A DNA stretch of 64,000 nucleotides, taken from the NCBI GenBank assembly GCA_028279595.1, contig JANQNK010000003.1, positions 240,568 to 304,567 on the forward strand. The letters are read 5' to 3'. Positions 32,444 to 49,539 of this stretch are shown piece after piece. The notes below the pieces were generated by a model, which did no database searches, had not been told where the DNA came from, and saw only the letters and a program-made list of their open reading frames with translations. Numbering within the stretch: the first letter of the stretch is position 1; each line of letters begins with the position of its first letter. Made by a program: the position numbers and the translations under genes. This DNA comes from Thermoplasmatota archaeon (GTDB lineage Archaea; Thermoplasmatota; JAKEGO01).

Positions 32444-35400
32444 CTACCGTTTCCTACCACCGATCGGGATGTAACCCAGGAACACCGCTATCAGGAACAC
32501 GATCACCAGCACCGCGGCCATCGGGATGACAAGACCGGCAAGGCCCTCGTCTTCGCTCTTCTCCTTCGGGACAACGACGTTGATGACCGTATCCGCGGTC
32601 TCCCCATGGTCGTCCGCGATGATCCGGACCGTGTAGACGCCGGGCTTGATGGGTCTGACCGTGACCATCACCGATGTGTCGTCCTCCGGGTCCAGTGTGA
32701 CCTCGACGTCGTCAAGGGTCACGTCCAGTCCCGCCGGGTCGTGCACCGTTGAAAGGGATATGGTAGATTCGTAATTGCCCATGTTCCCCACCTTCACGTA
32801 GAAGGTCATGGTCTTCCGGGCCCTGTCCGAGTTCTTTCCGTCCACGGATATCGTCGGCGAGTAGTACGGGTCCTCCTGGTTGTCGATCGTGATGATGATC
32901 ATGTCGGAGTCGGTCGCTCCCTCGAAGTCGGTCGCCCGGACCCGAAGGTTGTACTCGGCGTCCGAGAGCTCGAGCGTATCGAGGGTGTAGGAGTAGATGT
33001 CATCACCCTCGTAGTCCATCTCCTCGACGACCTCTCCGACGAGGAGCTCGACCGTGTCGATGGTCCTGTCGTCTGTGACCTTCGCCGTGACCTCGACGAG
33101 GCCATCGACCTTCCCCGACGACGGGGTCTGTATCTTGACCTTCGGGTCCTCGTTGACGTTGTCGATCTCCACCGACCATGATCTGAATGCCACATTCCCG
33201 AGGGTGTCCTTCGCCCTGACGTCGATGGTGTGAGGCCCCTCCATCAGGGACCTGGTATCCCATGGGATGCGCCACGTGTCCCCGTCCTGCTCCATGTCCT
33301 CCCATGTTGAGACGAGGTAGGCGGAGACCTCATCGATGTTCGGGTCGATGGTCCTTACCTTGACGGTGATATTGCCCTCGACGGAGTCGCCCTCCTTCGG
33401 GTTGTTTACCCGTATCTCGGGCTCCGTGTTGTCCACCTCGATATTGACGTACGTCTCGTTCACGGATCCGTTCGTGTCGGTGACGCGGAACTCGAGCCTG
33501 ACCGTGCCGTCGTCGGCCTCGGTCGTATCGATATCGCCTCTCCAGATGGAGTTCTTGGAACCGCCCTGGCTCTTCCATAGGTCCATCCAGTCCCCGCCGT
33601 CGATGGACGCCTCGACGTTTTCGATGCCGAAGTCGTCCTTCACCGTCACCTGGACCTCCATGTCCCCGCCGAACACACCGTCCAGCGGTTCGTCGATCCA
33701 TATGTACGGAAGGTGATTGACGTTGTTCGTCTCCCTCTCGATGGTCTCCTCGGTAACGTGTCCGACCATGTCGATGGCCCTGAACGTGATGGTGTGATCC
33801 CCGTCGGACACCGACCCGGAGTTCCAGACCGCCTGCCATCGATCGTAGTTCTGCTGTTCCAGGTCGTCCCATCCTCCGCCATCTATGCTGTACTCGACGG
33901 CGACGATGGTGTCGTCGACGACGTCGGCCTTCAATTTCACATATCCCGTCAATGTGCCTGAGGGGACGATGGTATCGAGTGTGGGATACTTGCTGTCCTT
34001 TATGAATGAGAATGACTCGGTGACCTCGTTGTCAACGGTGTCGTTGGCCCTGATCTTGACCAGGTAGCTTCCGTCATCCCTCGGGTCCCAATCGTAGTAG
34101 AACTCGTCGTCGATATGGTCCATGGTCTTCCAGCTTGTCGAGCCGATCCTGATCTGGACCTGGGCCAGGTTGTCGTCGTCCACGGTCAGGGTTATGTTGA
34201 TGCTCTCCTCGAAGGCGGTGCCGTTCACAGGAGTGACGTCCTCGAGGACCGGCGCTGTCGTGTCCAGCAGGACGCTGCCCGACTTCTGCCGGGTGCTCCC
34301 GTCGCTGTCCTCCGCCCTGATCGTGAATCCGACGTTCCCGTTGAGGCCGGACGTGTCCCATTCGTATCTGTACTTGTTCTCGCTGGTTCCGTTCTCCATC
34401 TCGATCCAGCTACCGTCATCGGGCCTGAACAGCACGGAGTCGATGCCCCTGTCGTCGATGACCTCGACCCTGACCGTTACGCCGACCCCGTACAGGTCGT
34501 CGTCCGGTTCGATGATCGTTATCACTGGAAGGTCGTTCACATTGTCGACGGAGACGTCAATGGAACCGTAACCCTCGTTCCCGGCGACGTCGCGGCATCT
34601 GACCTTGAGGGTCATCTCGCCGTCGGCCGCCTCGGTCGAATCCCAGTCGTAAGTGTAATTGGACCCATTGACGGACATCTTCGACCATCCGCCCTCGGCC
34701 TTGAAATGCACCGTGTCAATGTCGGACTCGTCGATGTCCGCCTTCACGACCACGGTCCCGGCGACCGTGTCGTCCTGGTCCGGATCGAGTATGTCGACCA
34801 CTGGCCACGTGTTGTCGAAATCGAGGTCCCACGACGTCTGGTTCGTGTTCCCGGCGTCGTCGGAAGCCCTCACGGATACCGTATGCTCCCCGTCGAGATA
34901 GGTCGACGTATCGATGTATGCGTAGTAGGGGTCGTCCATGAACATGTTGCCCCAGTCCCCGTCGTCGACCCGGAACCACACCTCGTCGATCCTCTCATCG
35001 GCGATGCTGGCCCTTATCTTGATCGTCTCCTTGACGGTCCCGTTGGGACCGAGCGGTACGATCTCCGGGGGAGTGTTGTCCACGGTCACGTTGATCGTCA
35101 TGGTCTCGGTCTGGTCCTGCGTGTCGTGGACACGGACGTGGATGTCGTGTATCCCGTCCTCGACCGATGTGGACGACCAGTCCGCCACCCATGAATCGTC
35201 GTCCTCCATCATGTCGGTCCATGAGGCATCATCGTCGATCCTGTAGTCCACCTTCGATATGCCTTCGTCGTCCGTCGCATTGGCGGCTATGCGGACAGTA
35301 CCGAAGACCAGCGCACCGTTCGCGGGTTCCAGGATCTCGACTGCCGGAGGGCTGTCGACGTTGTTGACGTAGACCGTCAGGTCGTCCATGCCCCCGTTCC

Positions 35401-38400
35401 CAAGGCTGTCGATGACGCTCAGCTCGATGTCGACATCGCCGTCCTCGACCTCCTGGGTGTTCCAGTCGGTCTCCCAGGTCCCCGAGGTGCTGTTACCGGA
35501 GGTCAGGTTCAATGAGGTCCAGTCGCCGCCGACCGAATACTCCACCGAGTCGACCCCCGAGACGTCGGATACATCGACCGAGATCGTGATGGTCCCGTTG
35601 ACCTCCTCGTCCTCCACCGGTGTGACGAACTCCGCGTCTGGGGGTGTGTTGTCCACCGTGACGTTCCGGTAGGCATCCCCTCGATTCCCTGCATGGTCGA
35701 ACGCCCTCACCTGGATGACGTGGTCGCCGTCTGCGACCGTCTTCGTGTCCCAGTCCTCGTGCCCGTCCGAGGACATCCAAGATCCGCCTGCGATCCTGAT
35801 ATCGGAGGACTCCACGCCGCTTGTGTCGTCATCCGTTGTGAAATCGATCGGCGTCATGTCGGCCACGTGCTGCCCCTCGTCGGGAGCCACGAAGGTCACT
35901 TCGGGCGGTGTGTTGTCAACTGTGAAGTCGACATCCACATAGGTGACGTTGTCCGTCGAATTGGTCGAACGGACCTCGATGGTGTAGTTGCCGTCCGAGA
36001 AAGATGTGGAGTTGAAGGTCGCGTTCCAGACGCCATCCCCTTCGGACCCCTCCTTGAGCTGCATGTCGGACCACGCGCCGTCGTCCACGCGCCATTCGAC
36101 GCTCACTATGCCGTCGGAGTCCCTCGCATGGACGAGGACCTCCTTTTCGCCGGCTATGAAGTCGCCCTCCTCCGGAGCGAGGATCTCCGTGACCCTCGAG
36201 ACATTGACGAATCCAGCGAACACGATGTCATCGATGTAGAGACCCTCTCCGTCATCGTCATCGCCGTCGTGCATCACATGGAATGCGATGGTCACGTTGA
36301 ATCCTTCGTAATCGTTGAGCGGGACCACGGCAGTGTCCCAGCGACCCTCAATCCCGCGGAGCGTCGTGAGCCGTTCCCATGACTCGCCATCGTCGGTCGT
36401 GATGTTGAGCTCGGCCGAGTCGCCCTCCATGTCGAAGTAGTATCTGAACCTCATGACTCCCTGCTTGATCGAGAGGAGGGAGATGTCCCTCGAGAGAGAC
36501 GCGTCACCCGATCCGGTGCTGTAGTTACCGGTGGAGTCGCTGCCGTACCTCCATGAGTGCGTACCGCTCCTTGACCTCTCGTCCGATATGTCCCAGATGG
36601 ACTCCGACGTCCATCCCGTGTCGGCCTCGCAGTCGTCGTCCAGGAGGACCTTCAGGACCGAGATCACGCCGTCGAGCACATTGTTCTCCATGGCCGTCTC
36701 GTTGCTGACCTGTTCTACCGCCATCGAGACGTTGAACGTCCCGTTCATGCTGGGTATGTGGTCGATCGCGACCTCCTCGAACCCGCCGGCAGCGAGGGTC
36801 ACAGTAGTGGAGTTCACCTCGTCACCGTCTATCTCGAGTACGACGTCGAACATCTCGCTGCCCGTACCGAGGTTGTGTACGATGGCCGTGAAGGTGGCCG
36901 TGACGTTCCTTTCCACGTACCTGTCGAAGGTGAGATCGACGATGGCGCCATCGTGGTCCACCTCGTCCCGGACCAGGGACCTCACGAGCTGTCGTCCGAA
37001 GCGTGTGTTGTCATCCTCGTCCAGGTTGTCGTTCGCGAACAGTCCGATATCGGAGGTGGCGAATATGGTCCCTTCACCGAATCCCGTGATGACACCCTGG
37101 AGGATGCTGTCATCCTCGGGGTAGTCCCAGAACAGCGGAGGCCCCGATACCTGGGCATGAGGCCTCTTCAGATAGAGGGCCTCGACCCCCTCGGTCGACT
37201 CGTGCTCCTCGATGTTGGTCGTACGGCCCTCACGGCCCGGCCACGACCCCCACGAGATGTTGAGTCCGCTGCCCAAGAGGTTCGCTGGTTCGAGCAGGTC
37301 CGTCACGATGAACAGGCCCTTTCCGGTCCTCACGAAGTCATGGACGGCCGAGATCTCCTCGTCCTCCATGTTGGCCGTCCTGAGAAGCATCAGCTCGTCA
37401 AGGTGGGCGATGTCCTCGTACCTCAGCTCCGTATCGATCTCCTCGAAGTCGAAACCAAGGTCCATTAGATATGAAATGAAGTCGCCATGGTCCGTCATGT
37501 TCCCGTGGAACGTGTGGATCCCCAAAGTCCCAGTCCCATAGAACACGTCCATGTTGGTCCAGGTGGCGTCGTTCCCGGGGGTGTCATCGCCTGCCTCGAC
37601 AGAGCCGACGACCCTGAAGTATCCCTCGTCCTCGATGGAGACGTCGAAGGTGAGGTTCTCCCACTCGCGGGAGTCGAGCGATGAGACGTTCCTGACGATC
37701 GTGGTGCCCGCGACGTCGATGGAGACGTTGATGTCCGACATCTCGTCGATCCCGAGATTGATGAGAGTGATGTCGACCTCGAAGGACTCGTTAGGCCTGA
37801 CGATATCGGGCGCCGAGATCCTGGCCACACCGAGATCCTCCGACTTGAGGGTCCTGCTCAGCCAGGACGCTGAATTGATCGGGAAGAGGGCGTTGTCCTC
37901 CTCGTCGAGGTCGCCGTCCCTGAGGAAGTCGTCGTCCGTGACCACGACCATCCGACCCTCGCCGTACTCGACGGCAGCGGATATGTTCGCTCCGTTCGAC
38001 GAGTTGAACAGGAGATCGCTGTCTCCGATCTCCAGGGACGCATCCGGCGACCTGAAGTAGAGCGACGATATCCCATCGGTGACGGGATGGTCCTCGATGG
38101 TGTGCGCCGTATCGTTCTGTTTGCCCGGAACCGTGGACCAGTTCAATCCCATGGGCCCGGTGAGCATCCCGTACGACTCCGGATCGTCATCTGCAAGCAT
38201 CAGGACGCCGCCGCCGAGGCGGACGTAGTCCTGGAGCTCGAGGATGTACGATACTGACAAAACGCCAGGACCCGGGATGATGACCAACCGGGACCTCAGC
38301 ATCTCGGCAAGGTCCATACCGTACTCCGACCCGTTCGATATCCTGTAGCCGTCGTCCGCCAGGAGCGAAAGGAGGTCGCCGTGGTCCGACGCGTCCCCGT

Positions 38401-41005
38401 TGACGTCGTCGATGAGGATACGGCCCTTGTCCGTGTATATGGTGATGGTGAAGTTGAGCTCGTTGTTGTCCTCGGCGTCCTCGCCGGAGACGGGTTCCGC
38501 CCAGACCGACAGCTCGTAGTCGCCGGCCTCATCGGTGCTCCATTCGAGCTCGACCTGCTCCGTGTCGCCGGAGTCGATGTCCACGGTCGTCGAGTCCTCG
38601 GTCAGGCCGTCGAGGATCAGCTTAACCTCGACGTCAGTCTCGTCCCTCAATCCGAGGTTCTCGAGCGTTGCAGTGACCGTGACCTCCTCCCCGACCTCGG
38701 CCCTCTCCGGGGCCGAAACGTCGGTGACGGCGATATCATGTTCGGTCCCGCCCACCTCGATCTCGAACTCGTCGGTCCATGTGTGGCCCGGAATGTCCTC
38801 AAAATCGAGCTGGAACGTCAGGTTCTCGCCCACGGGGGCCGACGATGAGAGCTTGAAGTCGTAGTCACCAAGGCTCCATGCGGTCTGTCCCGCCCCCACG
38901 TTCCCGTAGCCCTCCTCGGCGTCGGTGATGTTTACGTACGGTGAGGTCGTGCTGAGGGTCCCCTGGAGGCCCGTGGCCGTCTGGCTTCCGATGTTCCTGA
39001 CCTGGAGGTTCAGCTCGATGGTCTCCCCGGGATTGACGATCCCGTCGCCGTTCCCGCTGCTGGAACCAAGGCTGTCGTCGTCCACCAGATGGTCGTTGTA
39101 GATGATGTTCGGCACCGGCAGGACGCTGATCGTGTGCGACACCTTCGACGCCCGTACGCCGTTGGTCCAGGCCTTTGCCTCGACATCGAAATCGGTTGCG
39201 AGGTTGACTGTCGGTGCATCGGAATCGAACTCCACCTTGACCTCGCACTCCTGATAGAAGTCGATGTCCTCGGTGTGTATCAGGGTGCCCTCGAAGGTCC
39301 AGTACCCGTCCGAGCTCGTGGGATTGGTGTTGGATGACGAGTAATCGACCCCGCCGTCGGCCGTGACCTTGATGTTGGTCGGCTTGCTCCAATCGTCGGG
39401 TATCGTCACCCTGAACGTGGTCTCGTCGTTCTCGATGGTGTAGGGGGTCCTCGTGACCGGGAGGGTGGCCTCGAACGTGACCTCCTTCGTTCCGGTATCG
39501 ACCTCGTCAGGGCCGTCGACGTCGGTCCTCGTGAGGTCCTCGGCGCGCTTCACGGCGCCGTAGCCGTCGACCTGTCCGTATCCCCAGGCCCTGTCCCACT
39601 TCTCGCTGTACTGGGGCCTGTCAGTGCCAGCCCTGTCCTGTGCGGTATCGGCCAGGATCTGCTTGAGGTCCAGTTCGTATCTCGGAGCGCCCGGCCTAAG
39701 GCTCGGGTTCGCCTGAAGCATGAGAGCGATCAATCCGCCCACCGACGGTGTGGACATGCTGGTGCCCGAACTTGCAGCGAGAAGGACGGCGCTCCATGAG
39801 ACCGCCGAAGTCACACCTGTACCCACTGCCGTGACGTGAGGTTTCATCTCGTCGTAGACGTCCGAATCCCCATCGTCGCCCCGCGGGCCACGGGCGGAGA
39901 ACCCGGATATGGTGTCGTCCCCCCTGGTTATCGTGTTGTGATCGTCATGCGAACCGACGTTGATGCACCTGTCCGCAGCACCCGGCATCGCGAGGCCGTT
40001 GTTGTTCGGTCCGTTGTTTCCTGCCGCGACCGTACAAACGATCCCTACCTCGACGGCGTCGTTCACTGCCTGCGATGTCTGGTCGTTCCCGTTGGACGCT
40101 CCCCCGCCGAAGCTCATGCTGAGGACCGGAACGCCGTCGTTGGCCGGACCGTCGTTCTCCCAGTCGGTCTCGTTGTTGTCGATGCACCAGTCTATGGCGG
40201 CCAGGACGCCCGCGAGGTTCAGATTGGTGAGCGAACCGACCCTGATATCGATCAGCCTGGACTCTGGCGCCGGACCCTGATGGTCCGTGCCGGTCCCTAT
40301 CGCATCGCCGGCCACGTGCGTCCCGTGGCCCGAATCGGACGCCTCGGGGTTGACGCCAGCCCCGCCGATAAGGACACCGGTGACCGCGTCCGCCCCCGCG
40401 ATGAGCTTGGGGTCGAAGGTCAGCGGATTGTCATCCATGTCGTCGACCATCGTGTGGCCGACCGGTATCTGGTCGTTCACTCCTGAGTCCATGATGGCGA
40501 CGTTGATCCCGTCGCCCTTATAGCCGAGCTCCCAAGCGGTGTATGGGCTGAACTCGGCCGACTCCCTGACCTTGATGTTCGGGATAGCCATGTCGAGCAT
40601 GTACTCCATCTCTGGAGGGACCTCGAGCAGGAGCAGCCCCTTGAGCCTGACCAGGGTCGGGAGGTCATCGCTGTCGACGTTCTCGAGGACGATGGTCTCG
40701 AAGTTGTGAGCGGCGTAGACGACCTCGAATCCCCGTTCCTCGAGCCATTCCACGTCCCCTTCGGTGGGGATGTGGTCCACGGCCGCGAGGACGAGGTCGA
40801 AGACCTCACGCTGGCCGAGATAGGCCCTGTCCAGGAGGTCGTCGATGCCGTTCCCGTTCTCGTCGCGGTAATACCCCGACCACCAGCCGTCCGGACGGTC
40901 GCCGAGGGTGGGTGCACCCTTGACCTCCTCCGACGTGGCGAGTACGGGGATTAGGCTAGATACCATAAGCATGAATACTACCAGTGCTGTCGTCCTCATC
41001 GTCAT
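32444..41005 (-). CDS. Giant surface subtilase (S8) with CARDB, DUF4350-like and Ig-like repeats
   Basis: About 2,850 residues. I start at the ATG at 41005 (or 40999), since the predicted transcript begins near 41017 and the signal peptide is MRTTALVVFMLMVSSLIPVL; the track's TTG at 41032 lies upstream of it. Residues ~45-160 form a propeptide-like region. The S8 catalytic domain follows with Asp182 (VAIMDSGVND), His236 (HGTHVAG), Asn339 (AAGNNG) and Ser425 (GTSMSTP), track numbering; all are intact, so it should be active. Next come a CARDB-like domain (DIAVTDVSAPERAEVGEEV), two copies of a GATase-like/DUF4350-type domain (GDLLSLLADDGYRI; GDFISYLMDLGFDF), each with a CARDB-like partner, a jelly-roll domain (TGWTSESIWDISDE), about 12 Ig-like domains with VDNTPPE linkers, and a final NEW3-like domain. 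A C-terminal helix plus GGRKR anchors it. The whole protein is very acidic. Confidence 0.88.
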   Translation of the reverse strand: MTMRTTALVVFMLMVSSLIPVLATSEEVKGAPTLGDRPDGWWSGYYRDENGNGIDDLLDRAYLGQREVFDLVLAAVDHIPTEGDVEWLEERGFEVVYAAHNFETIVLENVDSDDLPTLVRLKGLLLLEVPPEMEYMLDMAIPNIKVRESAEFSPYTAWELGYKGDGINVAIMDSGVNDQIPVGHTMVDDMDDNPLTFDPKLIAGADAVTGVLIGGAGVNPEASDSGHGTHVAGDAIGTGTDHQGPAPESRLIDIRVGSLTNLNLAGVLAAIDWCIDNNETDWENDGPANDGVPVLSMSFGGGASNGNDQTSQAVNDAVEVGIVCTVAAGNNGPNNNGLAMPGAADRCINVGSHDDHNTITRGDDTISGFSARGPRGDDGDSDVYDEMKPHVTAVGTGVTSAVSWSAVLLAASSGTSMSTPSVGGLIALMLQANPSLRPGAPRYELDLKQILADTAQDRAGTDRPQYSEKWDRAWGYGQVDGYGAVKRAEDLTRTDVDGPDEVDTGTKEVTFEATLPVTRTPYTIENDETTFRVTIPDDWSKPTNIKVTADGGVDYSSSNTNPTSSDGYWTFEGTLIHTEDIDFYQECEVKVEFDSDAPTVNLATDFDVEAKAWTNGVRASKVSHTISVLPVPNIIYNDHLVDDDSLGSSSGNGDGIVNPGETIELNLQVRNIGSQTATGLQGTLSTTSPYVNITDAEEGYGNVGAGQTAWSLGDYDFKLSSSAPVGENLTFQLDFEDIPGHTWTDEFEIEVGGTEHDIAVTDVSAPERAEVGEEVTVTATLENLGLRDETDVEVKLILDGLTEDSTTVDIDSGDTEQVELEWSTDEAGDYELSVWAEPVSGEDAEDNNELNFTITIYTDKGRILIDDVNGDASDHGDLLSLLADDGYRISNGSEYGMDLAEMLRSRLVIIPGPGVLSVSYILELQDYVRLGGGVLMLADDDPESYGMLTGPMGLNWSTVPGKQNDTAHTIEDHPVTDGISSLYFRSPDASLEIGDSDLLFNSSNGANISAAVEYGEGRMVVVTDDDFLRDGDLDEEDNALFPINSASWLSRTLKSEDLGVARISAPDIVRPNESFEVDITLINLGIDEMSDINVSIDVAGTTIVRNVSSLDSREWENLTFDVSIEDEGYFRVVGSVEAGDDTPGNDATWTNMDVFYGTGTLGIHTFHGNMTDHGDFISYLMDLGFDFEEIDTELRYEDIAHLDELMLLRTANMEDEEISAVHDFVRTGKGLFIVTDLLEPANLLGSGLNISWGSWPGREGRTTNIEEHESTEGVEALYLKRPHAQVSGPPLFWDYPEDDSILQGVITGFGEGTIFATSDIGLFANDNLDEDDNTRFGRQLVRSLVRDEVDHDGAIVDLTFDRYVERNVTATFTAIVHNLGTGSEMFDVVLEIDGDEVNSTTVTLAAGGFEEVAIDHIPSMNGTFNVSMAVEQVSNETAMENNVLDGVISVLKVLLDDDCEADTGWTSESIWDISDERSRSGTHSWRYGSDSTGNYSTGSGDASLSRDISLLSIKQGVMRFRYYFDMEGDSAELNITTDDGESWERLTTLRGIEGRWDTAVVPLNDYEGFNVTIAFHVMHDGDDDDGEGLYIDDIVFAGFVNVSRVTEILAPEEGDFIAGEKEVLVHARDSDGIVSVEWRVDDGAWSDMQLKEGSEGDGVWNATFNSTSFSDGNYTIEVRSTNSTDNVTYVDVDFTVDNTPPEVTFVAPDEGQHVADMTPIDFTTDDDTSGVESSDIRIAGGSWMSSDGHEDWDTKTVADGDHVIQVRAFDHAGNRGDAYRNVTVDNTPPDAEFVTPVEDEEVNGTITISVDVSDVSGVDSVEYSVGGDWTSLNLTSGNSTSGTWETDWNTQEVEDGDVDIELSVIDSLGNGGMDDLTVYVNNVDSPPAVEILEPANGALVFGTVRIAANATDDEGISKVDYRIDDDASWTDMMEDDDSWVADWSSTSVEDGIHDIHVRVHDTQDQTETMTINVTVDNTPPEIVPLGPNGTVKETIKIRASIADERIDEVWFRVDDGDWGNMFMDDPYYAYIDTSTYLDGEHTVSVRASDDAGNTNQTSWDLDFDNTWPVVDILDPDQDDTVAGTVVVKADIDESDIDTVHFKAEGGWSKMSVNGSNYTYDWDSTEAADGEMTLKVRCRDVAGNEGYGSIDVSVDNVNDLPVITIIEPDDDLYGVGVTVRVEVIDDRGIDSVLFRPDDGSWIEMENGTSENKYRYEWDTSGLNGNVGFTIRAEDSDGSTRQKSGSVLLDTTAPVLEDVTPVNGTAFEESINITLTVDDDNLAQVQIRIGSTSWKTMDHIDDEFYYDWDPRDDGSYLVKIRANDTVDNEVTESFSFIKDSKYPTLDTIVPSGTLTGYVKLKADVVDDTIVAVEYSIDGGGWDDLEQQNYDRWQAVWNSGSVSDGDHTITFRAIDMVGHVTEETIERETNNVNHLPYIWIDEPLDGVFGGDMEVQVTVKDDFGIENVEASIDGGDWMDLWKSQGGSKNSIWRGDIDTTEADDGTVRLEFRVTDTNGSVNETYVNIEVDNTEPEIRVNNPKEGDSVEGNITVKVRTIDPNIDEVSAYLVSTWEDMEQDGDTWRIPWDTRSLMEGPHTIDVRAKDTLGNVAFRSWSVEIDNVNEDPKVKIQTPSSGKVDGLVEVTAKVTDDRTIDTVELLVGEVVEEMDYEGDDIYSYTLDTLELSDAEYNLRVRATDFEGATDSDMIIITIDNQEDPYYSPTISVDGKNSDRARKTMTFYVKVGNMGNYESTISLSTVHDPAGLDVTLDDVEVTLDPEDDTSVMVTVRPIKPGVYTVRIIADDHGETADTVINVVVPKEKSEDEGLAGLVIPMAAVLVIVFLIAVFLGYIPIGGRKR

Positions 41006-41038
41006 CACACCGCTTACTGACATCCATTCCAAACACAG

Positions 41039-41166: not shown

Positions 41167-41190
41167 TAGGAGCCCTGACATAGATACGTG

Positions 41191-44100
41191 ATGACATTAG
41201 CACGTACTCTCTCGATTTTGCTTGTCCTCACATTATGCCTCATAGCGATCGGCTCGTCAACGGCGTCCCACTGGAACGGCACCCGGGGAGGCCCCGACCG
41301 CAATTCAGCGTACGATTCGGACCTATCCACCCCGCTTGGGATCGAATGGTCCTTCGAGGGGAACGGGGAGCTCAGGACCCCGCTGGTCAGCGGCGATTCC
41401 GCACTGTTCTCGTCCCTCGTAAGGAAGGTCTACGCTGTCGACATCACCAACGGCAGCCAGATATGGGAGTCCGGTGTCGATTCCTACTCCGTGAAACAGC
41501 AGGAGATAATCGGCGACAGGCTCTACGTCAAGGCCGGTAACAGGATACTCAACATCAGCATCGAGAACGGGAGCCGTACGATGTTCACCGTACCAGGTGG
41601 ACCGAGCTCGGCTCCGATCGCGTTCGGCCCGTACCTGATGCTGGTCAATTCCACACATCTCCTCGCATACAGGAACGACACTCTCGACTGGGGTGTGGGA
41701 TTCACGGGGTCCCCGTCGCTCCCCGCGACAGACGGCGATCACATCTTCCTGCGTGCGGGCACGGACCTGTATCGCGTCGACATCGGCGGAGCACAGACAT
41801 CGGTCACCCTGGCGGGAAGTGGTGGTTCCCCCACGGTCGCGAACAACAGGGTGTACATAGGCACCGACACGATGATCTACGAGTTCAGGACGAACCTGGT
41901 GGAGAACAGGTCGATCAACGCGTCCTACAACAAGAAGGCCCTCGCCGTCACCGATTCCCTGGTCGCGGTCTCGGGTTCGAACATCATCTCCTACTCGATG
42001 GCCAACTTCAGCCAGGAATGGTCCGTGACCCTCGATTACGAGATCACGACGCCACCGATAGTGTTCATCGACCACATTGCGGTGGGCACCGAGTGCGGCG
42101 TCTCCGTCGTGACGGTGGACGGCACCCACGTCCAGGACCTGGACATCGATGACGAGGTTCTCGGATGCATAGCTCCGCTGGACGACGGTATCCTCGCCGC
42201 GACCGACGGCGGATACCTCTTCAAGTTCTCCCGCGACCAGGACGGCGATACCGTCGCGGACGTGGTGGACGACTTTCCCACCGAACCCACCCAGTGGATC
42301 GATTCCGACGGGGACGGATACGGCGACAACCAGACCGGCGTCATGCCCGATCTGTTCCTTGAGGAGCCGACGCAGTGGAACGACACCGATGGTGACGGCT
42401 ACGGGGACAATCCGGAAGGCGTCGATCCCGACGACCTCCCGCTCGAGCCGACCCAGTGGAACGACACGGACGGCGACGGGCACGGCGACAACCAGACCGG
42501 ATTCGAGCCGGACAGGTTCATAGACGAGCCGACCCAGTGGTCGGACATCGACAATGACGGTTACGGCGACAACGCCAGCGGGGTCGATCCAGACGTCTTC
42601 CCGACGGTGGGGACCCAGTGGAACGACACCGATGGGGACGGTTACGGCGACAACAGGATCGGCGTGGATCCCGACCTTTTCCCTCTGGAACCATCCCAGT
42701 GGGCCGATGTCGACGGCGACGGATACGGCGACAACGCTTCCGGGGTGAACCCCGACATGCTTCCATCGAGCCCGACCCAGTGGAACGACTCCGACGGCGA
42801 CGGCTACGGCGACAACATGAACGGACTGGACCCCGACCTGTTCCAGGACGATCCGACCCAGTGGTTCGACGACGACGGGGACGGTTACGGCGACAACACC
42901 ACCGGGAACGAACCGGACAAATTCCCTGGCGTTCCCTCGCAGTGGAACGACACCGACGGGGACGGATTCGGCGACAATCAGGACGGGGTGTCCGCCGACA
43001 GGTTCATCCAGGACCCGACACAGTGGTTCGACCGCGATACCGACGGATACGGTGACAATCCCAACGGCACGGATTTCGATGCATTCCCTGACGACCCTAC
43101 CCAGTGGAACGACACCGATGAGGACGGATACGGCGACGAGCCGGACGGCCTGCATCCCGATGCCTTCCCCTATGACCCGAACGAGTGGAACGACACGGAC
43201 GGCGACGGTGTAGGCGACAACACGGACCTCTATCCGTTCGATGCGGACAACGACGGGACCGTGGACGAAATGGACGCCTTCCCGCTCGATGCCGCAGCGG
43301 CAAAGGACACGGACGGAGACGGTCACCCGGACGAGTGGAACCCCGGACACAATACGTCCACCTCGACCACTGGACTGACCCTGGACGCCTTCCCGAGGAA
43401 GGCCAGCCAGTGGTACGACAGGGACGGCGACGGATATGGAGACAACCCAACGGGAGCCCAGCCCGATGCATTCCCCGACGACCCCGTTGACTGGGTCGAC
43501 TCCGACGGGGACCTCGTCGGCGACAACACCGACCCATTCCCGGACGACGCCACCGAGTGGGAGGACACCGACGGCGACGGGATCGGGAACAACGCCGACC
43601 TGTATCCGAAGGACAGGGACAACGACGGCCACCCGGACCGGAAGGACGACTTCCCGGACGACCCTGACGAATGGGCCGATTCCGACGGGGACGGCATCGG
43701 GGACAAGTCCGACATCATACCCATGCACAATACCCATTTCGCCTACCTCATCACTGCCATAGTCCTCGCGATAATACCGATCATCGGAGCAGTGGCGTAC
43801 AGGAGGAGGCAGGAGGAGAGGCGGAAGAGGATCAAGGCCGGCATCAAGGCCGTCTCGGCGGGCCGGACCAGCATCGCCAGCAAGGGCGAGCGCAGGCGCG
43901 TCGGCGGGTACGTAAGCGAGGCAAAGAAGGCCGTTGCGACCGGTGAGCTCGAGAGGGCGGACAAGATGCTCAGGAAGGGCGAGGCGGAGTCGCATCGCGC
44001 CCGGTACATCGAGGAGATGTACAAAAGGTACCGCGGACACCTGGACCACCTGCACAGGACCATGGTGGCAAAGGGAATGGCGACGACCGAGGTCTCCAAG

Positions 44101-44778
44101 CTGGTCAAGGAGTCGCGGACAGGACCACTTCCGAAGAGGGTCGATTCCCTGATGAAGGGAGTGTCCGAGGCCACGAAGGCGCTGCAGGCACACGAGACCG
44201 CCACCATGCTGACCAACGAGCTGAAGGGCGCAGCCAGGGAGCTCGAGGACCGCGGATACGCGGTCGGCGGGCTCAAGTCCGAGAGCGCAATGGTCGCGGC
44301 CCTGATCGAGGAGGGCAACTACCGCCGGACGTTCAAGCTCATCATGCCCATTATCGGGCACATCAGGTACCTGCAGGGGCTTCCGAGGGGTTCGGAGAGG
44401 CCCAAGGACGAGGTCGACAAGCTCATCAACACCAGGAACGTACTTACCGGAGGCGATCCTGAGGCGATCATCAGGCTGTTCAAGGAGTCGATGGGAAAGG
44501 TCAAGACCGACACCTGGGACGACCTCATAACTGTGAAGGGTCCAGAACCATGGGGCATCGACATCGCTAACGCCTCCAAGGCCGTCACACCGACCGCCAT
44601 GGACGACGCCGCGGTCAACCTCGCGCTCCACAACCTGAAGTACATCTACGTGTTCTCGGGGATCGGGTTCACCCCTGACGCGCTCGCGAGGTCCATGGAG
44701 ATGCGGATCGTCAGGCCGATGAGCGTCAACGAGGCGATGTACCTGATATGGTCCACGGCACCTCCGGTCCAGGAGTGA
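41191..44778 (+). CDS. Membrane protein: beta-propeller, TSP3 calcium-repeat stalk, cytoplasmic helical domain
   Basis: About 1,195 residues. A signal peptide (MTLARTLSILLVLTLCLIAI) is followed by a PQQ-like beta-propeller to about residue 345 (WSFEGNGELRTPLVSGDSAL, VYAVDITNGSQIW). Residues ~349-845 are thrombospondin type 3-like repeats, about 17 units mostly 27 residues long (NDTDGDGYGDN.TGVDPD.FP..PTQW); the Asp/Asn pattern is a calcium-binding one and predicts a rigid, calcium-dependent stalk. A transmembrane helix (FAYLITAIVLAIIPIIGAVAY) comes next. The last ~320 residues are basic then helical (YVSEAKKAVATGELERADKM) and should be cytoplasmic; I do not recognise that domain. The plan suggests an outside-in receptor or a surface spike tied to an internal partner (inference). 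I use the ATG at 41191 instead of the GTG at 41188. Confidence 0.82.
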   Translation: MTLARTLSILLVLTLCLIAIGSSTASHWNGTRGGPDRNSAYDSDLSTPLGIEWSFEGNGELRTPLVSGDSALFSSLVRKVYAVDITNGSQIWESGVDSYSVKQQEIIGDRLYVKAGNRILNISIENGSRTMFTVPGGPSSAPIAFGPYLMLVNSTHLLAYRNDTLDWGVGFTGSPSLPATDGDHIFLRAGTDLYRVDIGGAQTSVTLAGSGGSPTVANNRVYIGTDTMIYEFRTNLVENRSINASYNKKALAVTDSLVAVSGSNIISYSMANFSQEWSVTLDYEITTPPIVFIDHIAVGTECGVSVVTVDGTHVQDLDIDDEVLGCIAPLDDGILAATDGGYLFKFSRDQDGDTVADVVDDFPTEPTQWIDSDGDGYGDNQTGVMPDLFLEEPTQWNDTDGDGYGDNPEGVDPDDLPLEPTQWNDTDGDGHGDNQTGFEPDRFIDEPTQWSDIDNDGYGDNASGVDPDVFPTVGTQWNDTDGDGYGDNRIGVDPDLFPLEPSQWADVDGDGYGDNASGVNPDMLPSSPTQWNDSDGDGYGDNMNGLDPDLFQDDPTQWFDDDGDGYGDNTTGNEPDKFPGVPSQWNDTDGDGFGDNQDGVSADRFIQDPTQWFDRDTDGYGDNPNGTDFDAFPDDPTQWNDTDEDGYGDEPDGLHPDAFPYDPNEWNDTDGDGVGDNTDLYPFDADNDGTVDEMDAFPLDAAAAKDTDGDGHPDEWNPGHNTSTSTTGLTLDAFPRKASQWYDRDGDGYGDNPTGAQPDAFPDDPVDWVDSDGDLVGDNTDPFPDDATEWEDTDGDGIGNNADLYPKDRDNDGHPDRKDDFPDDPDEWADSDGDGIGDKSDIIPMHNTHFAYLITAIVLAIIPIIGAVAYRRRQEERRKRIKAGIKAVSAGRTSIASKGERRRVGGYVSEAKKAVATGELERADKMLRKGEAESHRARYIEEMYKRYRGHLDHLHRTMVAKGMATTEVSKLVKESRTGPLPKRVDSLMKGVSEATKALQAHETATMLTNELKGAARELEDRGYAVGGLKSESAMVAALIEEGNYRRTFKLIMPIIGHIRYLQGLPRGSERPKDEVDKLINTRNVLTGGDPEAIIRLFKESMGKVKTDTWDDLITVKGPEPWGIDIANASKAVTPTAMDDAAVNLALHNLKYIYVFSGIGFTPDALARSMEMRIVRPMSVNEAMYLIWSTAPPVQE
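42292..43710 (+). repeat. 81-bp tandem coding repeats (TSP3-like units)
   Basis: The core CAGTGGAACGACACCGA and GACGG(A/T)TACGGCGACAAC recurs every 81 nt through the first eleven units, then the spacing becomes irregular. Each unit encodes one D-x-D-G-D-G-x-G-D-N calcium loop plus a P-x-Q-W turn. The repeats are in frame and diverged at many third positions. Confidence 0.8.
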
Positions 44779-44918: not shown

Positions 44919-47900
44919 ATGAAAGCTAGGGTTTGGCCAGTGCTATTATTTCTGATCGGATTGTTATTAATCCCGGCCCCCTCGGCCAGCGGGGACGCGG
45001 GGGATTTCACCCACTTCGTGCTAGGCGAGGAGATGACCGCAACCTGGTGCGGTTTCTGTCCCACCGCGGCCGAACAGTTGTCCGACATCTACTACAACGA
45101 CAGCTACGAGTTCTACTACGTAGCCCTTATCACGGACGTCAATGACAAGGCCGACGACAGGACTGGCGACTATCCGACCTTCCAGGGCTATCCGACCGTC
45201 TACTTCGACGGCGGATTCCGCGAGCGGACGGGAGCCCAGGACGACAAGTCCGCTTATCAACAGGACATCGAGGACTCTGGCGAGAGGGTCGATACGCCGG
45301 TTGCGATCGAGCTCAATATGTCCTACCTCGGCGACAGCGAAATATACGTCAAGGTACGCCTTCGATGGGACGAGGACGGAACGATCGTCAACACTGACCT
45401 CCAGGTGTTCCTCAGGGTATACATCACGGAGATAACGTCGAGGTACTACAATGCCGACGACAAGCCCTACCACTTCGGCTTCCTCGATTACGCGTTCGAG
45501 GAGGGGGTCGACCTCGATCCACACGAGTGGTGGGAGAGCGAGACGACATGGGTCGGCGCCGACCACGAGGATGCCAACGGAGACGATTTCGGGGACATCG
45601 ATTACAGCAACATTGCACTCGTGGCTGCGGTCTTCAATGACGAGAGCAGCGACACCGACGACTACAGCCTAAACTGCACCGCGGCCATCGCACCCCACCT
45701 GACCATAACGGACCCGTTCGATAACACGACCCAGAATGGAGACTTCGACCTCAAGGTCGAAGCCACGCCCCATTATACGGAGGCCGACCCTGCATCGATA
45801 TCCAAGATCGAGTACTCGTTCGGCGAGGATGGATGGACCGACCTCGACGAGGCCGTCGGGGACGAATGGAGCACATCGGTGGACACCACATCGCTCGAGA
45901 ACGGATGGCACACCCTCCACGTACGTGCGACCGATTCGAAGAACACGACGATGGAGACCAACGTCAGCTTCGAGCTCGATGGCGAGGACACCTTCGCTCC
46001 TGTCGTGGAGTTCGTGTCCCCCGACGATGGAGGGACGATGTCGGGTGATGTCGAGATAATCGCGGAGATCACAGATCATTCAAACTTCACGGCCGAGTTC
46101 AGGGTAGGCTCGGGCGGATGGACCGAGCTGGACCATCTCTCGGATGACACCTACAAGGCAACATGGGATTCCACCGAGGTCACCGACGGGGATCAGACGA
46201 TCACGATCCTCGCGATGGATGAGCACGACAACGACGGGTTCCATCACCTCGACATCGTTGTCGACAACCTGAATGTCGAGATGACCTCCCCCAGATCGGG
46301 GACCGAGGTGGAGAACATAGTGGACATCGCCGCCACCGCCGTCAACACAGCCGAGATCGATTACGCTGAGCTTCTGATCGACGGTGAGGACATCGAGGAA
46401 TTGGAGGTGGACGGTAGCGACATCGCAGGAGAATGGAACTCGCGGTCCGTGGACAATGGCGAGCACTCCTTGACGGTCATCGTGTATGACACGATCGGGA
46501 ACGAGGCTGCCGATACCGTGACGGTCGACGTGGACAACGACGTCAACGACGAGGAACCCCCCGAACTGATCGTTGACTCCCCTTCGGAGGGCGAGGAGAT
46601 AGGCTCGACCTACAGGCTCGAAGCCACGGCCAACGACGAGAACGGCATCGACCGAGTGGAGTTCAGGTTCGTCGACGGGGATTGGACCGAGATGGACCAT
46701 GGCGACGGGGACGATTATTCCCACGACCTCAATACCAGGGAGATGGAGAACGGGGACTATGTGCTCGAGTTCCGCGCCCAGGACAGCTCGGCGAACAAGG
46801 CCACGGTCTCTTTGAACGTCACCGTCCATAACGAGGTGGACGAGGAGGCCCCGGAAATCGAACCCCGCAATCCGATAGAGGGTGACCTGGTCTCCCTCGA
46901 TGACACATTCCAGGTGGTGCTGCACGCCGTTGACGACAGCGAAATGGCCATTGTAGAGTCCAGGCTGGACTCCGGGGACTGGCGGGAGATGGAGTACGAC
47001 GAGGACCTGTCAGCGGAATATGATACGGATACCTATTCATTCACATATGATGGCACTCACAACGAGTTCAACGATCTGGAGGATGGTACCCACACCATCG
47101 CGTTCCGAGCCTCGGACGGTTCGGATAACACGGCAGAGGAGGAGGTCGAGTTCACGACCGATTCCACTCCGCCCGTGATAACCCTTGACCTCCCCTCGTT
47201 CATCAGCGGCGAGGTCGAGATGGGTTACGTGCTGGATGACATGTCCGACATATCAAGCCTTGAGGTGGGGATCGCCGGGGACGTACTCGATTCCATAGAC
47301 CATCCCGATGGTGAAGGCACCCTGGTGCTGGACCTCTCGGAGGTGGAGGATGGGCAGGTCGATCTCTGGGCGATCGCGGTCGACATGGCGGGAAACGAGG
47401 GTACCGGCGAACACGAGGCCACGGTCGATAATACCGCTCCATCCTTGTCGTTGTCTAGTCCCGGGGACGGAGCGTCCTTAGCGGGCGATATCGACATCGA
47501 GGTCGAGGTGGTCGATGACAATCCAGATGGTGTCACATGGCGCATGGACCTCGGTCCATGGTCCGACATGAATGGTAGTTCCGGGACATATTCGGTCAGG
47601 ATCCCTGTTGAGGATGTGGACGACGGATGGCACGACATCGATGTCGCTGCCGAGGACAGGGCCGGGAATGTCGACGAGCTTGCCTTCGAGGTCTTCACCG
47701 ACAACAGCGCTCCGATGCTGAAGAGCATCGAACATTACCCGGACATCCCCTACGTCGACGACGATGTCTTCTTCGAGGCCGAGGTGGAGGATGTTTCCGG
47801 AGTCGAGACCGTTCTCCTTTGGTACGAGATATGCCAGGGTTCGATCTGCATGCAGGCGGACGAGGTCGAAATGACCCTCGACGGCGGTGTCTACATGAGC

Positions 47901-49016
47901 TCGATCGCCTTCGACGACCACGGCAACGTCACTTTCAGGATCAAGGCCGAGGACGCCCTCGGCAACCGGGACACGCTTCTCGAGGACACGTTCGACGTGA
48001 TCGAGGAGGACATCGAGGACCCGGGTGAGGTCGATCCGCCCGAGGAGATAGCTGGGCCGGCCAGTGCAATGCTGCATTCCCTTTCGGAGGACGAGGTCGT
48101 GAGCGGTGTCCTGGCCCTCGAGGGGGGCGCCTACGATTCGACCAAGGTCGAGATCAGGTTCGATGACGGCGAGTGGATGGATGTGGGAACGCGTACGGTC
48201 CATCGCACCGAGAGGATGCCCGATTTCACACTGAGCACGATCGACAATCAAACCATCACTCTCGGGGACCTCGAGGGTCGCGTCGTGATCCTCGACTTCA
48301 TGGCAACCTGGTGCGGCGCATGCAAGGAGATCGCGATGAGCCTGGACGAGATCCAGGACATCTACGGCACTGGCGTGGCGATCATATCGGTGGACGTCGA
48401 CACCAGCCAGGACGAGCGCGACGCCGTCCCTGCCTATCTCGACGAGCACGGCCACGACTGGCCATTCGCCTTCGACGAGAACGGCCTGTCCGACAGGTTC
48501 GGTGTCGACCCCCTTCCTCACGTCGTGATCGGGACTCCCGACGGGTACATCAGCAGCCAGATCGTAGGGTCCGTGGACGTGGAGCGCCTCCAGCTCGAGA
48601 TCGGAATGGCCCTGACCGAGAGGGAGTGGTCATACTACTTCGACACCAGGATGCTCTCCAACGGTGAACACACGATCACGGTCAGGACGGATGACGAATC
48701 CGAAACCGTCAGCTTCTACGTGGACAACGGTGCTGTCTCCGATCCGGACGAAGACGACGACGGTTTCATCGGATCACCGATGTTCTGGCTCTTCCTCATT
48801 GCATTAGTGATCATCATCGCACTCGTTGCTGCCAGGCCTAAGGGTCGGAAGGCAGTCCACGTCGAGGCGCAGGTATTGAGCCCGCCAGTGAGGCCGTGCC
48901 GCAGATGCGGTGGCCCTCTGAGCCACGTCCCCCAGTACGACCGCTGGTACTGTTACAGCTGTCAAGCGTACGGTGATATCGAACCCAATGATGACAGTTT
49001 CATAGAGATGAGGTGA
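44919..49016 (+). CDS. Ig-repeat membrane protein with two thioredoxin domains and a cytoplasmic zinc ribbon
   Basis: 1,365 residues. A signal peptide ends near residue 25. An N-terminal thioredoxin-fold domain carries W43-C-G-F-C47 (ATWCGFCP) with the cis-proline region GYPTVYFDGG. Eight or nine Ig-like domains follow (APVVEFVSPDDG, EPPELIVDSPSEG, APSLSLSSPGDG). Near residues 1100-1236 a complete TlpA/ResA-like thioredoxin domain appears (MPDFTLSTIDNQTITLGDL, ATWCGACKE at 1131-1135, DPLPHVVI). It is flanked by the two halves of an Ig-like domain (VEIRFDDGEWMDV before, YYFDTRMLSNGEHTITVR after), so it looks inserted into that domain. A helix near 1288-1306 crosses the membrane, and the tail holds a zinc ribbon CRRCGG...CYSC (1327-1350). 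It could run disulfide exchange outside the cell. The message is probably leaderless and continues into the next gene. Confidence 0.85.
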   Translation: MKARVWPVLLFLIGLLLIPAPSASGDAGDFTHFVLGEEMTATWCGFCPTAAEQLSDIYYNDSYEFYYVALITDVNDKADDRTGDYPTFQGYPTVYFDGGFRERTGAQDDKSAYQQDIEDSGERVDTPVAIELNMSYLGDSEIYVKVRLRWDEDGTIVNTDLQVFLRVYITEITSRYYNADDKPYHFGFLDYAFEEGVDLDPHEWWESETTWVGADHEDANGDDFGDIDYSNIALVAAVFNDESSDTDDYSLNCTAAIAPHLTITDPFDNTTQNGDFDLKVEATPHYTEADPASISKIEYSFGEDGWTDLDEAVGDEWSTSVDTTSLENGWHTLHVRATDSKNTTMETNVSFELDGEDTFAPVVEFVSPDDGGTMSGDVEIIAEITDHSNFTAEFRVGSGGWTELDHLSDDTYKATWDSTEVTDGDQTITILAMDEHDNDGFHHLDIVVDNLNVEMTSPRSGTEVENIVDIAATAVNTAEIDYAELLIDGEDIEELEVDGSDIAGEWNSRSVDNGEHSLTVIVYDTIGNEAADTVTVDVDNDVNDEEPPELIVDSPSEGEEIGSTYRLEATANDENGIDRVEFRFVDGDWTEMDHGDGDDYSHDLNTREMENGDYVLEFRAQDSSANKATVSLNVTVHNEVDEEAPEIEPRNPIEGDLVSLDDTFQVVLHAVDDSEMAIVESRLDSGDWREMEYDEDLSAEYDTDTYSFTYDGTHNEFNDLEDGTHTIAFRASDGSDNTAEEEVEFTTDSTPPVITLDLPSFISGEVEMGYVLDDMSDISSLEVGIAGDVLDSIDHPDGEGTLVLDLSEVEDGQVDLWAIAVDMAGNEGTGEHEATVDNTAPSLSLSSPGDGASLAGDIDIEVEVVDDNPDGVTWRMDLGPWSDMNGSSGTYSVRIPVEDVDDGWHDIDVAAEDRAGNVDELAFEVFTDNSAPMLKSIEHYPDIPYVDDDVFFEAEVEDVSGVETVLLWYEICQGSICMQADEVEMTLDGGVYMSSIAFDDHGNVTFRIKAEDALGNRDTLLEDTFDVIEEDIEDPGEVDPPEEIAGPASAMLHSLSEDEVVSGVLALEGGAYDSTKVEIRFDDGEWMDVGTRTVHRTERMPDFTLSTIDNQTITLGDLEGRVVILDFMATWCGACKEIAMSLDEIQDIYGTGVAIISVDVDTSQDERDAVPAYLDEHGHDWPFAFDENGLSDRFGVDPLPHVVIGTPDGYISSQIVGSVDVERLQLEIGMALTEREWSYYFDTRMLSNGEHTITVRTDDESETVSFYVDNGAVSDPDEDDDGFIGSPMFWLFLIALVIIIALVAARPKGRKAVHVEAQVLSPPVRPCRRCGGPLSHVPQYDRWYCYSCQAYGDIEPNDDSFIEMR

Positions 49017-49023
49017 AGGAACC

Positions 49024-49539
49024 ATGAATACCAGGATCGGAATGACTGCAGGCCTCGCCGTGTTCGCGATGGCCTTGGTGATGATAGCGCTCGTCCCGTC
49101 GGGATCGGCGCAGGCGGATTTCGAGGACGTCTCGCACAGCCCTTCGGCGGCGATAACGTCCGACGATCAGGTCGAGGTCACAGTCGAGCTCGACAGCACG
49201 GACAATGTCTCAGCCGTCAACATACAGGTGTGCATAATCGAACCGAACTACAACTGCTATCAATGGGATGATATGGACCAGGACGACGAGACGTTCACAT
49301 ACACGATCTCTGCTCATGACGGCGGTTCTTTGATGGGCTACAAGATCGAGATCGAGTATGACGACGGCACTGACGACGAATACTCCCCGTCCGAGGACAC
49401 ATATCACGAGTACGAGATCGAGGAGGACGGGTCCTCCGGCGGCGGCGACGACGGGGATGACACCCCATTCCTCGGCGCCCCCTTGATCGCGGCAGGTGTC
49501 GTGGTGGCCGCGGTGGCCCACAAAGGGCGAAGACGCTGA
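49024..49539 (+). CDS. Small secreted, C-terminally anchored acidic protein
   Basis: 171 residues. It has a signal peptide (MNTRIGMTAGLAVFAMALVM...GSAQA), one small beta domain of about 100 residues with a cysteine pair (VCIIEPNYNC), an acidic Ser/Gly linker (EEDGSSGGGDDGDD), a helix (FLGAPLIAAGVVVAAVA) and a basic end (HKGRRR). This tripartite end differs from the PEFG tails upstream. The ATG lies 7 nt after the stop of the double-thioredoxin gene, whose last codons supply the GAGGTGA ribosome site, so the two are co-transcribed and may be translationally coupled. The paired cysteines make it a possible substrate or partner of that protein (inference). I do not recognise the beta domain; it resembles a short Ig-like fold. 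Confidence 0.75.
   Translation: MNTRIGMTAGLAVFAMALVMIALVPSGSAQADFEDVSHSPSAAITSDDQVEVTVELDSTDNVSAVNIQVCIIEPNYNCYQWDDMDQDDETFTYTISAHDGGSLMGYKIEIEYDDGTDDEYSPSEDTYHEYEIEEDGSSGGGDDGDDTPFLGAPLIAAGVVVAAVAHKGRRR

What the first reader, a model, noticed from the sequence alone, without database searches (positions are those of the whole stretch)
44919..49016. TlpA-type thioredoxin domain inserted into an Ig-like domain
The repeated Ig-like unit normally runs ...VEIR.DDG.W.DM...W...(F/W)DTR.L.DG.HTI.VR.... Here the first half (to GEWMDVG) and second half (YYFDTRMLSNGEHTITVR) are separated by about 140 residues that form a complete TlpA/ResA-like domain with WCGAC. A second thioredoxin active site (WCGFC) sits at the N-terminus. 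Nested insertion of an oxidoreductase into an Ig repeat, with two CxxC centres in one surface protein, is an arrangement I have not seen described.
Basis: partly seen in the sequence, partly recalled or inferred. Interest (0 to 1): 0.72.

Follow-up and report, generated by a model that had tools for sequence, protein, structure and literature searches.

The report
Redox enzyme nested inside an Ig domain
An archaeal cell-surface protein carries a complete thiol-exchange enzyme domain spliced into a loop of its last immunoglobulin-like domain, plus two further cysteine-pair modules, so it is probably a surface-anchored relay that keeps disulfides outside the cell in check; the nesting trick is known from adhesins, but not, as far as I found, with a redox enzyme.

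Summary
ORF 44919-49016 (+, 1365 aa) ends in an Ig-like (Big_7) domain whose two halves (residues 1046-1090 and 1236-1273) are separated by a complete TlpA/ResA-like domain (1091-1235, WCGAC). A profile built from 19 uninterrupted Ig relatives matches the first half at positions 7-48 and the second at 53-82; the rejoined halves score 59.8 bits as one domain. The TlpA part is confidently modelled and closest to ResA. The nested form was seen only in this one genome.

There is probably a third: the Ig domain just before the split one has C972-QGSI-C977 facing each other across a beta-hairpin, and the next gene (49024-49539) is a stand-alone anchored copy of that Cys-hairpin Ig. In other genomes of the phylum this Ig travels with thioredoxin-family genes; in one it is fused to TlpA and a CcdA electron channel.

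Best reading: a membrane-anchored thiol-disulfide relay fed from CcdA, with the split Ig presenting the TlpA. Nesting: near-certain. Relay: inferred. Split Ig domains presenting a functional domain are known in adhesins, so this is a new variant of a known kind.

The parts
44919..49016 (+). whole gene, 1365-aa secreted, C-terminally membrane-anchored protein
44919..44993 (+). signal-peptide-like N-terminus (residues 1-25)
   Evidence: hydrophobic stretch after a basic start read directly from the translation; no predictor run
45006..45689 (+). N-terminal thioredoxin-like domain (res 30-257), Omp28-like, with its own C-terminal subdomain
   Evidence: profile A2 matches solved thioredoxins, best E 1.2e-5 over positions 4-90; CxxC, cis-Pro and E145/S148/W185/N205 invariant in 33 sequences
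45045..45059 (+). WCGFC active-site motif (C44, C47)
45690..47690 (+). array of Ig-like (Big_7) domains, res 258-924
   Evidence: Pfam PF17957, six stretches, E 1.2e-43
47697..48011 (+). Cys-hairpin Ig domain (Ig8, res 927-1031)
   Evidence: AlphaFold2 mean pLDDT 94.6, pTM 0.84; family alignment A5
47832..47849 (+). C972-QGSI-C977 pair on the two strands of a hairpin
   Evidence: model residues 46 and 51, strands 36-47 and 50-51, two-residue turn; both invariant in A5, whose rows were chosen for carrying the pair
48054..48188 (+). first half of the split Ig domain (Ig9a, res 1046-1090)
   Evidence: profile positions 7-48, 26.7 bits
48189..48623 (+). inserted TlpA/ResA-like domain (res 1091-1235)
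   Evidence: Pfam AhpC-TSA 1.2e-13; pLDDT about 94-98 over most of it; Foldseek to ResA 1st9_B, TM 0.91 by target, rmsd 1.5
48309..48323 (+). WCGAC active-site motif (C1132, C1135)
48624..48737 (+). second half of the split Ig domain (Ig9b, res 1236-1273)
   Evidence: profile positions 53-82, 30.2 bits
48207..48215 (+). ACCGAGAGG, first copy of a 9-bp repeat (Thr-Glu-Arg) near the start of the insert
   Evidence: weak, by my estimate about 3% by chance
48615..48623 (+). ACCGAGAGG, second copy at the end of the insert
48777..48836 (+). transmembrane helix followed by RPKGRK (positive inside)
   Evidence: read from the sequence
48897..48962 (+). cytoplasmic zinc-ribbon-like tail, CxxC ... CxxC (C1327-C1348)
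   Evidence: related tails in several named archaeal genomes and one bacterial genome
49024..49539 (+). next gene, 7 bp after the stop: 171-aa anchored stand-alone Cys-hairpin Ig protein (C-IIEPNYN-C)
   Evidence: A5 profile E 4.2e-13 and BLAST 7e-15 to L141 of G018, which lies beside a TlpA-CcdA gene

Best explanation
The gene encodes a secreted, membrane-anchored archaeal surface protein with a TlpA/ResA-like thiol-disulfide oxidoreductase inserted into the loop between the front strands (profile positions up to 48) and back strands (from 53) of its last, membrane-proximal Ig domain. The split Ig acts as a rigid two-point mount that holds the TlpA domain close to the membrane with its active site facing outward, as split Ig domains do for binding domains in adhesins. 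I propose that it works as a relay: the genome's one CcdA-type channel, itself carrying a TlpA domain, brings electrons from cytoplasmic thiols; the nested TlpA takes them up and passes them to the neighbouring Cys-hairpin Ig (C972/C977) and/or the small anchored Cys-hairpin Ig encoded next door, and these reduce the N-terminal WCGFC thioredoxin-like domain, which sits at the end of the Ig stalk and reduces wrong or oxidised disulfides in the many surface proteins. Shown: nesting, the folds, the motifs, gene adjacency. Inferred: the direction of electron flow, the order of the steps, the substrates and the presenting role of the Ig.
For: Nesting. TlpA completeness and fold. N-terminal domain is a thioredoxin-fold family with invariant CxxC. 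The same N-terminal family occurs in one chain with TlpA and CcdA in G041, G050 and G020, and with TlpA but without the N-terminal CxxC in the incomplete G010 protein (hhalign 98.3%, E 1.7e-14). Cys-hairpin Ig: confident model with the two Cys opposed on a hairpin; all 8 pair-bearing homologues found by an Ig-only search lie in or beside a thioredoxin-family gene (7 by profile, 1 read by eye) against 0 of 6 without the pair (Fisher p 0.0003, or 0.005 if the eye-read case counts as negative). G007 fuses Cys-hairpin Ig, TlpA and CcdA in one 603-aa chain and G018 has them as adjacent genes. The next gene in the window is such an Ig. G000 has one TlpA-CcdA gene (L002), and VKOR was not found in the class. 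Bacterial precedent for CcdA feeding extracytoplasmic thioredoxin-like proteins: PMC7034828.
Against: No biochemistry. The nested form is in one genome only (a draft 86% complete). The Ig flanks of the model have pLDDT of only about 54-77 and coordinates could not be inspected. Two thioredoxin sites in one chain could act independently. G000's CcdA gene lies on another contig, not beside this one. The Cys-hairpin Ig is not recognisable as DsbD_N by Pfam, by PDB profile search or in the top 50 Foldseek hits. Missing VKOR in incomplete genomes does not exclude an oxidative pathway by other proteins. The homologues behind the Fisher test are not independent.
Confidence: 0.6

Rival explanations
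1. The two thioredoxin-like domains are independent. The N-terminal one folds or isomerises surface proteins and the TlpA was picked up by chance in a loop that tolerated it; there is no internal relay, and C972/C977 is an ordinary structural disulfide.
For: The closest full-length relative (G002, 1064 aa) has the N-terminal domain and Igs but no TlpA, and L132 has the Cys-Ig and last Ig without an insert and with a degenerate N-terminal site, so the parts are separable. Stand-alone TlpA genes are common in the phylum.
Against: The same modules are repeatedly fused or adjacent in other families; the Cys pair tracks with thioredoxin-family genes.
Confidence: 0.3
2. The system is oxidative: the protein introduces disulfides into surface proteins, with the N-terminal domain as a DsbA-like oxidase.
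For: The class is rich in very large surface proteins; two WCxxC sites would allow oxidation as well as reduction.
Against: VKOR was not found in the three genomes of the class, the modules co-occur with CcdA, a reductive channel, and TlpA/ResA-type domains are usually reductants (established knowledge).
Confidence: 0.08
3. The nested arrangement is an assembly or gene-model artefact.
For: Only one draft genome shows it.
Against: One uninterrupted frame of 1365 codons; both boundaries lie in one Ig loop; GC3 of the insert (0.855) is within about two standard deviations of same-sized stretches of the gene (mean 0.79, sd 0.04).
Confidence: 0.02

Closest known systems
ResA (Bacillus), TlpA/DsbE-type thiol-disulfide oxidoreductases
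   Same: fold (Foldseek TM 0.91 by target to 1st9_B), WCxxC, cis-Pro, PDF start
   Different: inserted in an Ig domain of a large surface protein; scores 65.7 against the ResA cut-off 170; the position of ResA Glu80, three residues after the second Cys, is Ile here (read by eye, ResA numbering from my own knowledge)
Split Ig-like domains of RTX adhesins MpIBP and FrhA (PMC10865825) and the nested domains of RrgA (PMC5333627)
   Same: a domain interrupted by a whole functional domain, whose two chain ends leave on one side
   Different: in MpIBP and FrhA the guest binds a ligand; here it is an oxidoreductase, and the host is an archaeal membrane-anchored protein
DsbD: nDsbD (Ig fold, C103/C109 on a beta-hairpin), CcdA-like membrane part, thioredoxin-fold domain (PMC7347389)
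   Same: combination of an Ig domain with a hairpin Cys pair and thioredoxin-fold domains; G007 has Cys-Ig + TlpA + CcdA in one chain
   Different: the window protein has no CcdA part; no sequence match to DsbD_N and nDsbD not among the top 50 fold matches
Omp28 family (PF11551 / NF033782)
   Same: weak match over the N-terminal domain
   Different: below both curated cut-offs; longer conserved C-terminal subdomain and Ig stalk
CcdA - thioredoxin-like - MsrAB pathway of Streptococcus gordonii (PMC7034828)
   Same: CcdA feeding extracytoplasmic thioredoxin-like proteins
   Different: there the final acceptor is a methionine sulfoxide reductase; here the substrate is unknown

Membership tests
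TlpA/ResA-like thiol-disulfide oxidoreductase (fold family) | thioredoxin fold with WCxxC, cis-Pro and the TlpA-type insert | tested here: met
ResA proper (NF002854) | score above the curated cut-off | tested here: not met
   65.7 bits against 170
Big_7 Ig domain (PF17957) | one domain above the gathering cut-off, contiguous once the insert is removed | tested here: met
   27.9 bits against 24.1, positions 9-70; 59.8 bits with an independent profile
Split Ig-like presenting domain (as in MpIBP/FrhA) | Ig-like domain interrupted in one loop by a complete functional domain | tested here: met
Split Ig-like presenting domain (as in MpIBP/FrhA) | guest domain oriented outward from the stalk | not testable with these tools
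DsbD | CcdA/DsbD_TM domain in the same chain | tested here: not met
   absent from the 1365-aa protein; one separate TlpA-CcdA gene in the genome
DsbD | Ig-fold domain with a Cys pair on opposite strands of a hairpin | tested here: met
   C972/C977 in a pLDDT-94.6 model, from the strand list
DsbD | homology of that Ig domain to nDsbD | tested here: not met
   no DsbD_N hit, no nDsbD in the PDB profile search or Foldseek top 50
Omp28 (PF11551, NF033782) | score above the curated cut-off | tested here: not met
   18.6 bits for the domain against 34.9; 21.5 against 150
Thioredoxin fold (N-terminal domain) | profile similarity to thioredoxins, CxxC and cis-Pro | tested here: met
   E 1.2e-5 to 2yzu; invariant C18, C21, P66 of A2

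The most novel reading that the evidence does not exclude
Archaea of this phylum use a previously undescribed extracytoplasmic thiol relay whose shuttle is an Ig domain with a redox-active hairpin Cys pair, convergent with nDsbD, and in this lineage three redox sites (nested TlpA, Cys-hairpin Ig, thioredoxin-like tip) were built into one surface-anchored chain that conducts electrons along an Ig stalk.
Probability: 0.4. Interest if true: 0.72.

Novelty: new variant of a known kind. Interest (0 to 1): 0.52.

Why it matters
How archaea without a closed periplasm control disulfides on their surface proteins is poorly known. This locus gives a concrete, testable system: a CcdA-TlpA electron source, a Cys-hairpin Ig family that keeps company with thioredoxins, and a protein in which the oxidoreductase is mounted in a split Ig domain. 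It also extends the split-Ig presenting principle from adhesins to an enzyme, which is of use for protein engineering.

Tried and rejected
A second structure job with Ig relatives in the alignment was planned, but MAFFT laid the uninterrupted Ig sequences onto the TlpA domain, so that alignment was not used. Filing the Cys-hairpin Ig as nDsbD was rejected. Filing the N-terminal domain as Omp28 was rejected (below cut-off). Among 390 genomes of the phylum the listed TlpA matches aligned to the TlpA part without covering both Ig flanks; about 14 loci, mostly with large frames, were read in full and none was nested, but not every match was read. Recent acquisition of the insert: no sign in GC3.
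Full report
What was claimed. I checked both, then looked at the neighbours and at relatives in 390 genomes of the same phylum.

The gene. The ORF is open from ATG 44919 to 49016 (+) and encodes 1365 aa. In order it has a signal-peptide-like start, an N-terminal thioredoxin-like domain (WCGFC), an array of Big_7 Ig domains, an Ig with a Cys pair (Ig8), a split last Ig (Ig9) holding a TlpA domain (WCGAC), one transmembrane helix, and a cytoplasmic tail with CxxC...CxxC. A TATA-like stretch (tgtattatata) lies about 20-30 bp before the ATG (read by eye). The window lies on G000:C19 of a 2.29-Mb draft genome, 86% complete; only three genomes of the class are held.

Is the last Ig really split? Yes. 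(a) Pfam: the first half alone has no hit, the second half alone has Big_7 positions 52-70 at 19.1 bits; rejoined they give one Big_7 domain, positions 9-70, 27.9 bits, above the cut-off of 24.1; in swapped order 23.6, below it. (b) A profile from 19 uninterrupted Igs of other proteins of G000, G001, G002 and G008, without the window sequence, matches the first half at positions 7-48 (26.7 bits) and the second at 53-82 (30.2 bits), and the rejoined pair at 7-82 with 59.8 bits; 200 shuffles of either half reach at most 38.7. (c) The rejoined Ig finds dozens of uninterrupted Igs in the three genomes that align across the junction (35 distinct Igs listed). Two membrane-proximal Igs of G000, L008 (VEISIDDGPWSSVNGTA-EWSYW) and L005, show the empty loop. 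(d) L132 of G008 has the same order - N-terminal domain, Cys-hairpin Ig, last Ig, membrane anchor - with the last Ig uninterrupted (Big_7 50 bits). (e) AlphaFold2 of residues 940-1280, given only TlpA relatives so that nothing favoured the nested reading, gives TlpA at about 94-98 and the Ig flanks as four strands before and three or more after, at about 54-77. The flanks are therefore only moderately confident, and coordinates could not be inspected.

The guest domain. It is a complete TlpA-type domain: 36 relatives share the two Cys invariantly, and the model's closest solved structures are ResA (TM by target up to 0.91, rmsd 1.5). It is not ResA by NCBI's model (65.7 against 170). A 9-bp repeat, ACCGAGAGG, flanks the insert; by my estimate this would be expected by chance about 3% of the time, so it is only a hint at how the insertion arose. 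GC3 of the insert (0.855) is within about two standard deviations of same-sized stretches of the gene (mean 0.79, sd 0.04), so there is no clear sign of recent foreign origin.

The N-terminal domain. A profile of 33 sequences matches solved thioredoxins (E 1.2e-5), with CxxC and the cis-Pro invariant. It is common in the phylum: 86 of 390 genomes at E up to 1e-10, up to seven matches in one genome. It is Omp28-like but below the Omp28 cut-offs. The closest full-length relative, G002 (1064 aa, 61% identical in this domain), has the N-terminal domain and Igs but neither TlpA nor the same tail, so the nested TlpA was either added in the window's lineage or lost there.

A third Cys pair. Ig8 carries C972-QGSI-C977. 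A model from 11 sequences has mean pLDDT 94.6 and pTM 0.84, and its strand list puts the two Cys opposite each other across a two-residue turn. This is the geometry described for nDsbD, whose C103 and C109 lie on opposite strands of a hairpin of an Ig fold (PMC7347389). An Ig-only search returned 14 homologues outside this protein: 8 with the pair and 6 without. All 8 with the pair lie in, or next to, a thioredoxin-family gene (7 by profile, L138 by eye: CPAC in a nearby gene); none of the 6 without does within the flanks fetched (Fisher p 0.0003, or 0.005 counting L138 as negative). The sequences are related, so these values overstate the evidence. The A5 alignment was chosen for the pair, so the invariance in it is not evidence.

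The neighbour. The next gene, 49024-49539, starts 7 bp after the stop and encodes a 171-aa anchored protein with one Cys-hairpin Ig (C-IIEPNYN-C): A5 profile E 4.2e-13; BLAST 7e-15 to L141 of G018. L141 lies beside a TlpA-CcdA gene. In G007 the same Ig, TlpA and CcdA form one 603-aa chain, and in both G007 and G018 a gene for the N-terminal thioredoxin-like family lies divergently. In G041, G050 and G020 one chain holds the N-terminal family, an Ig-like region with C-x5-C, TlpA and CcdA (family link by hhalign, 98.3%, E 1.7e-14); the incomplete G010 protein lacks the N-terminal CxxC. So the modules found together in the window protein are repeatedly joined elsewhere, with an electron channel.

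How it most likely works. G000 has one DsbD_TM gene, fused to TlpA (L002); VKOR was not found in the class (the same search finds VKOR in three control genomes). I infer a reducing relay: cytoplasmic thiols, CcdA-TlpA, nested TlpA, Cys-hairpin Ig (in the chain or the neighbouring protein), N-terminal thioredoxin-like domain, surface-protein disulfides. The order and direction are inference. The bacterial CcdA - thioredoxin-like - MsrAB pathway is a precedent for feeding surface enzymes (PMC7034828). The split Ig would hold the TlpA near the membrane with both chain ends on one side and the active site free, as argued for split Ig-like domains in MpIBP and FrhA (PMC10865825).

Novelty. Nested domains in surface proteins are known (PMC10865825; PMC5333627). 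I found no paper describing an oxidoreductase as the guest, in a library that lacks most subscription papers. The nested form is known from one genome. I call it a new variant of a known kind. The Cys-hairpin Ig family and its company with thioredoxins and CcdA is, to my mind, the more general finding.

Noticed in passing
L138 (G165) 1426-3226 and L140 (G099) 3-1842: Conserved string: anchored Cys-hairpin Ig gene, 4Fe-4S membrane protein (Fer4_5, NapH/CcoG-like by eye), and a thioredoxin-like gene with CLSC and C(A/P)AC; suggests a second electron source for this Ig.
   Followed up: partly
L132 (G008:C77), 532-aa ORF: Relative of the N-terminal thioredoxin-like domain that has lost CxxC but keeps the Cys-hairpin Ig.
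   Followed up: partly
window 32444-41032 (-): 2862-aa protein with subtilase (Peptidase_S8), CARDB and eight Big_7 stretches: large surface protease.
   Followed up: no
window 7847-29081 (+): Three very large ORFs in a row (2829, 2398, 1704 aa) with only weak G8-domain hits.
   Followed up: no
window 41188-44778 (+): 1196-aa protein with an N-terminal beta-propeller-like part (PQQ_2), many acidic DTDGDGYGDN-type repeats, a transmembrane helix and a charged tail.
   Followed up: no
L005 and L008 (G000 contigs C10 and C18): Surface proteins with extracellular repeats and Ig domains, one transmembrane helix and two winged-helix-like cytoplasmic domains: possible membrane-bound transcription regulators (by eye).
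   Followed up: no
L084 (G022:C19): At least five TlpA-type genes within about 15 kb, one with a C-terminal Cys-pair Ig and one fused to CcdA.
   Followed up: no
window 48207-48215 and 48615-48623: 9-bp direct repeat ACCGAGAGG at both ends of the TlpA insert.
   Followed up: partly
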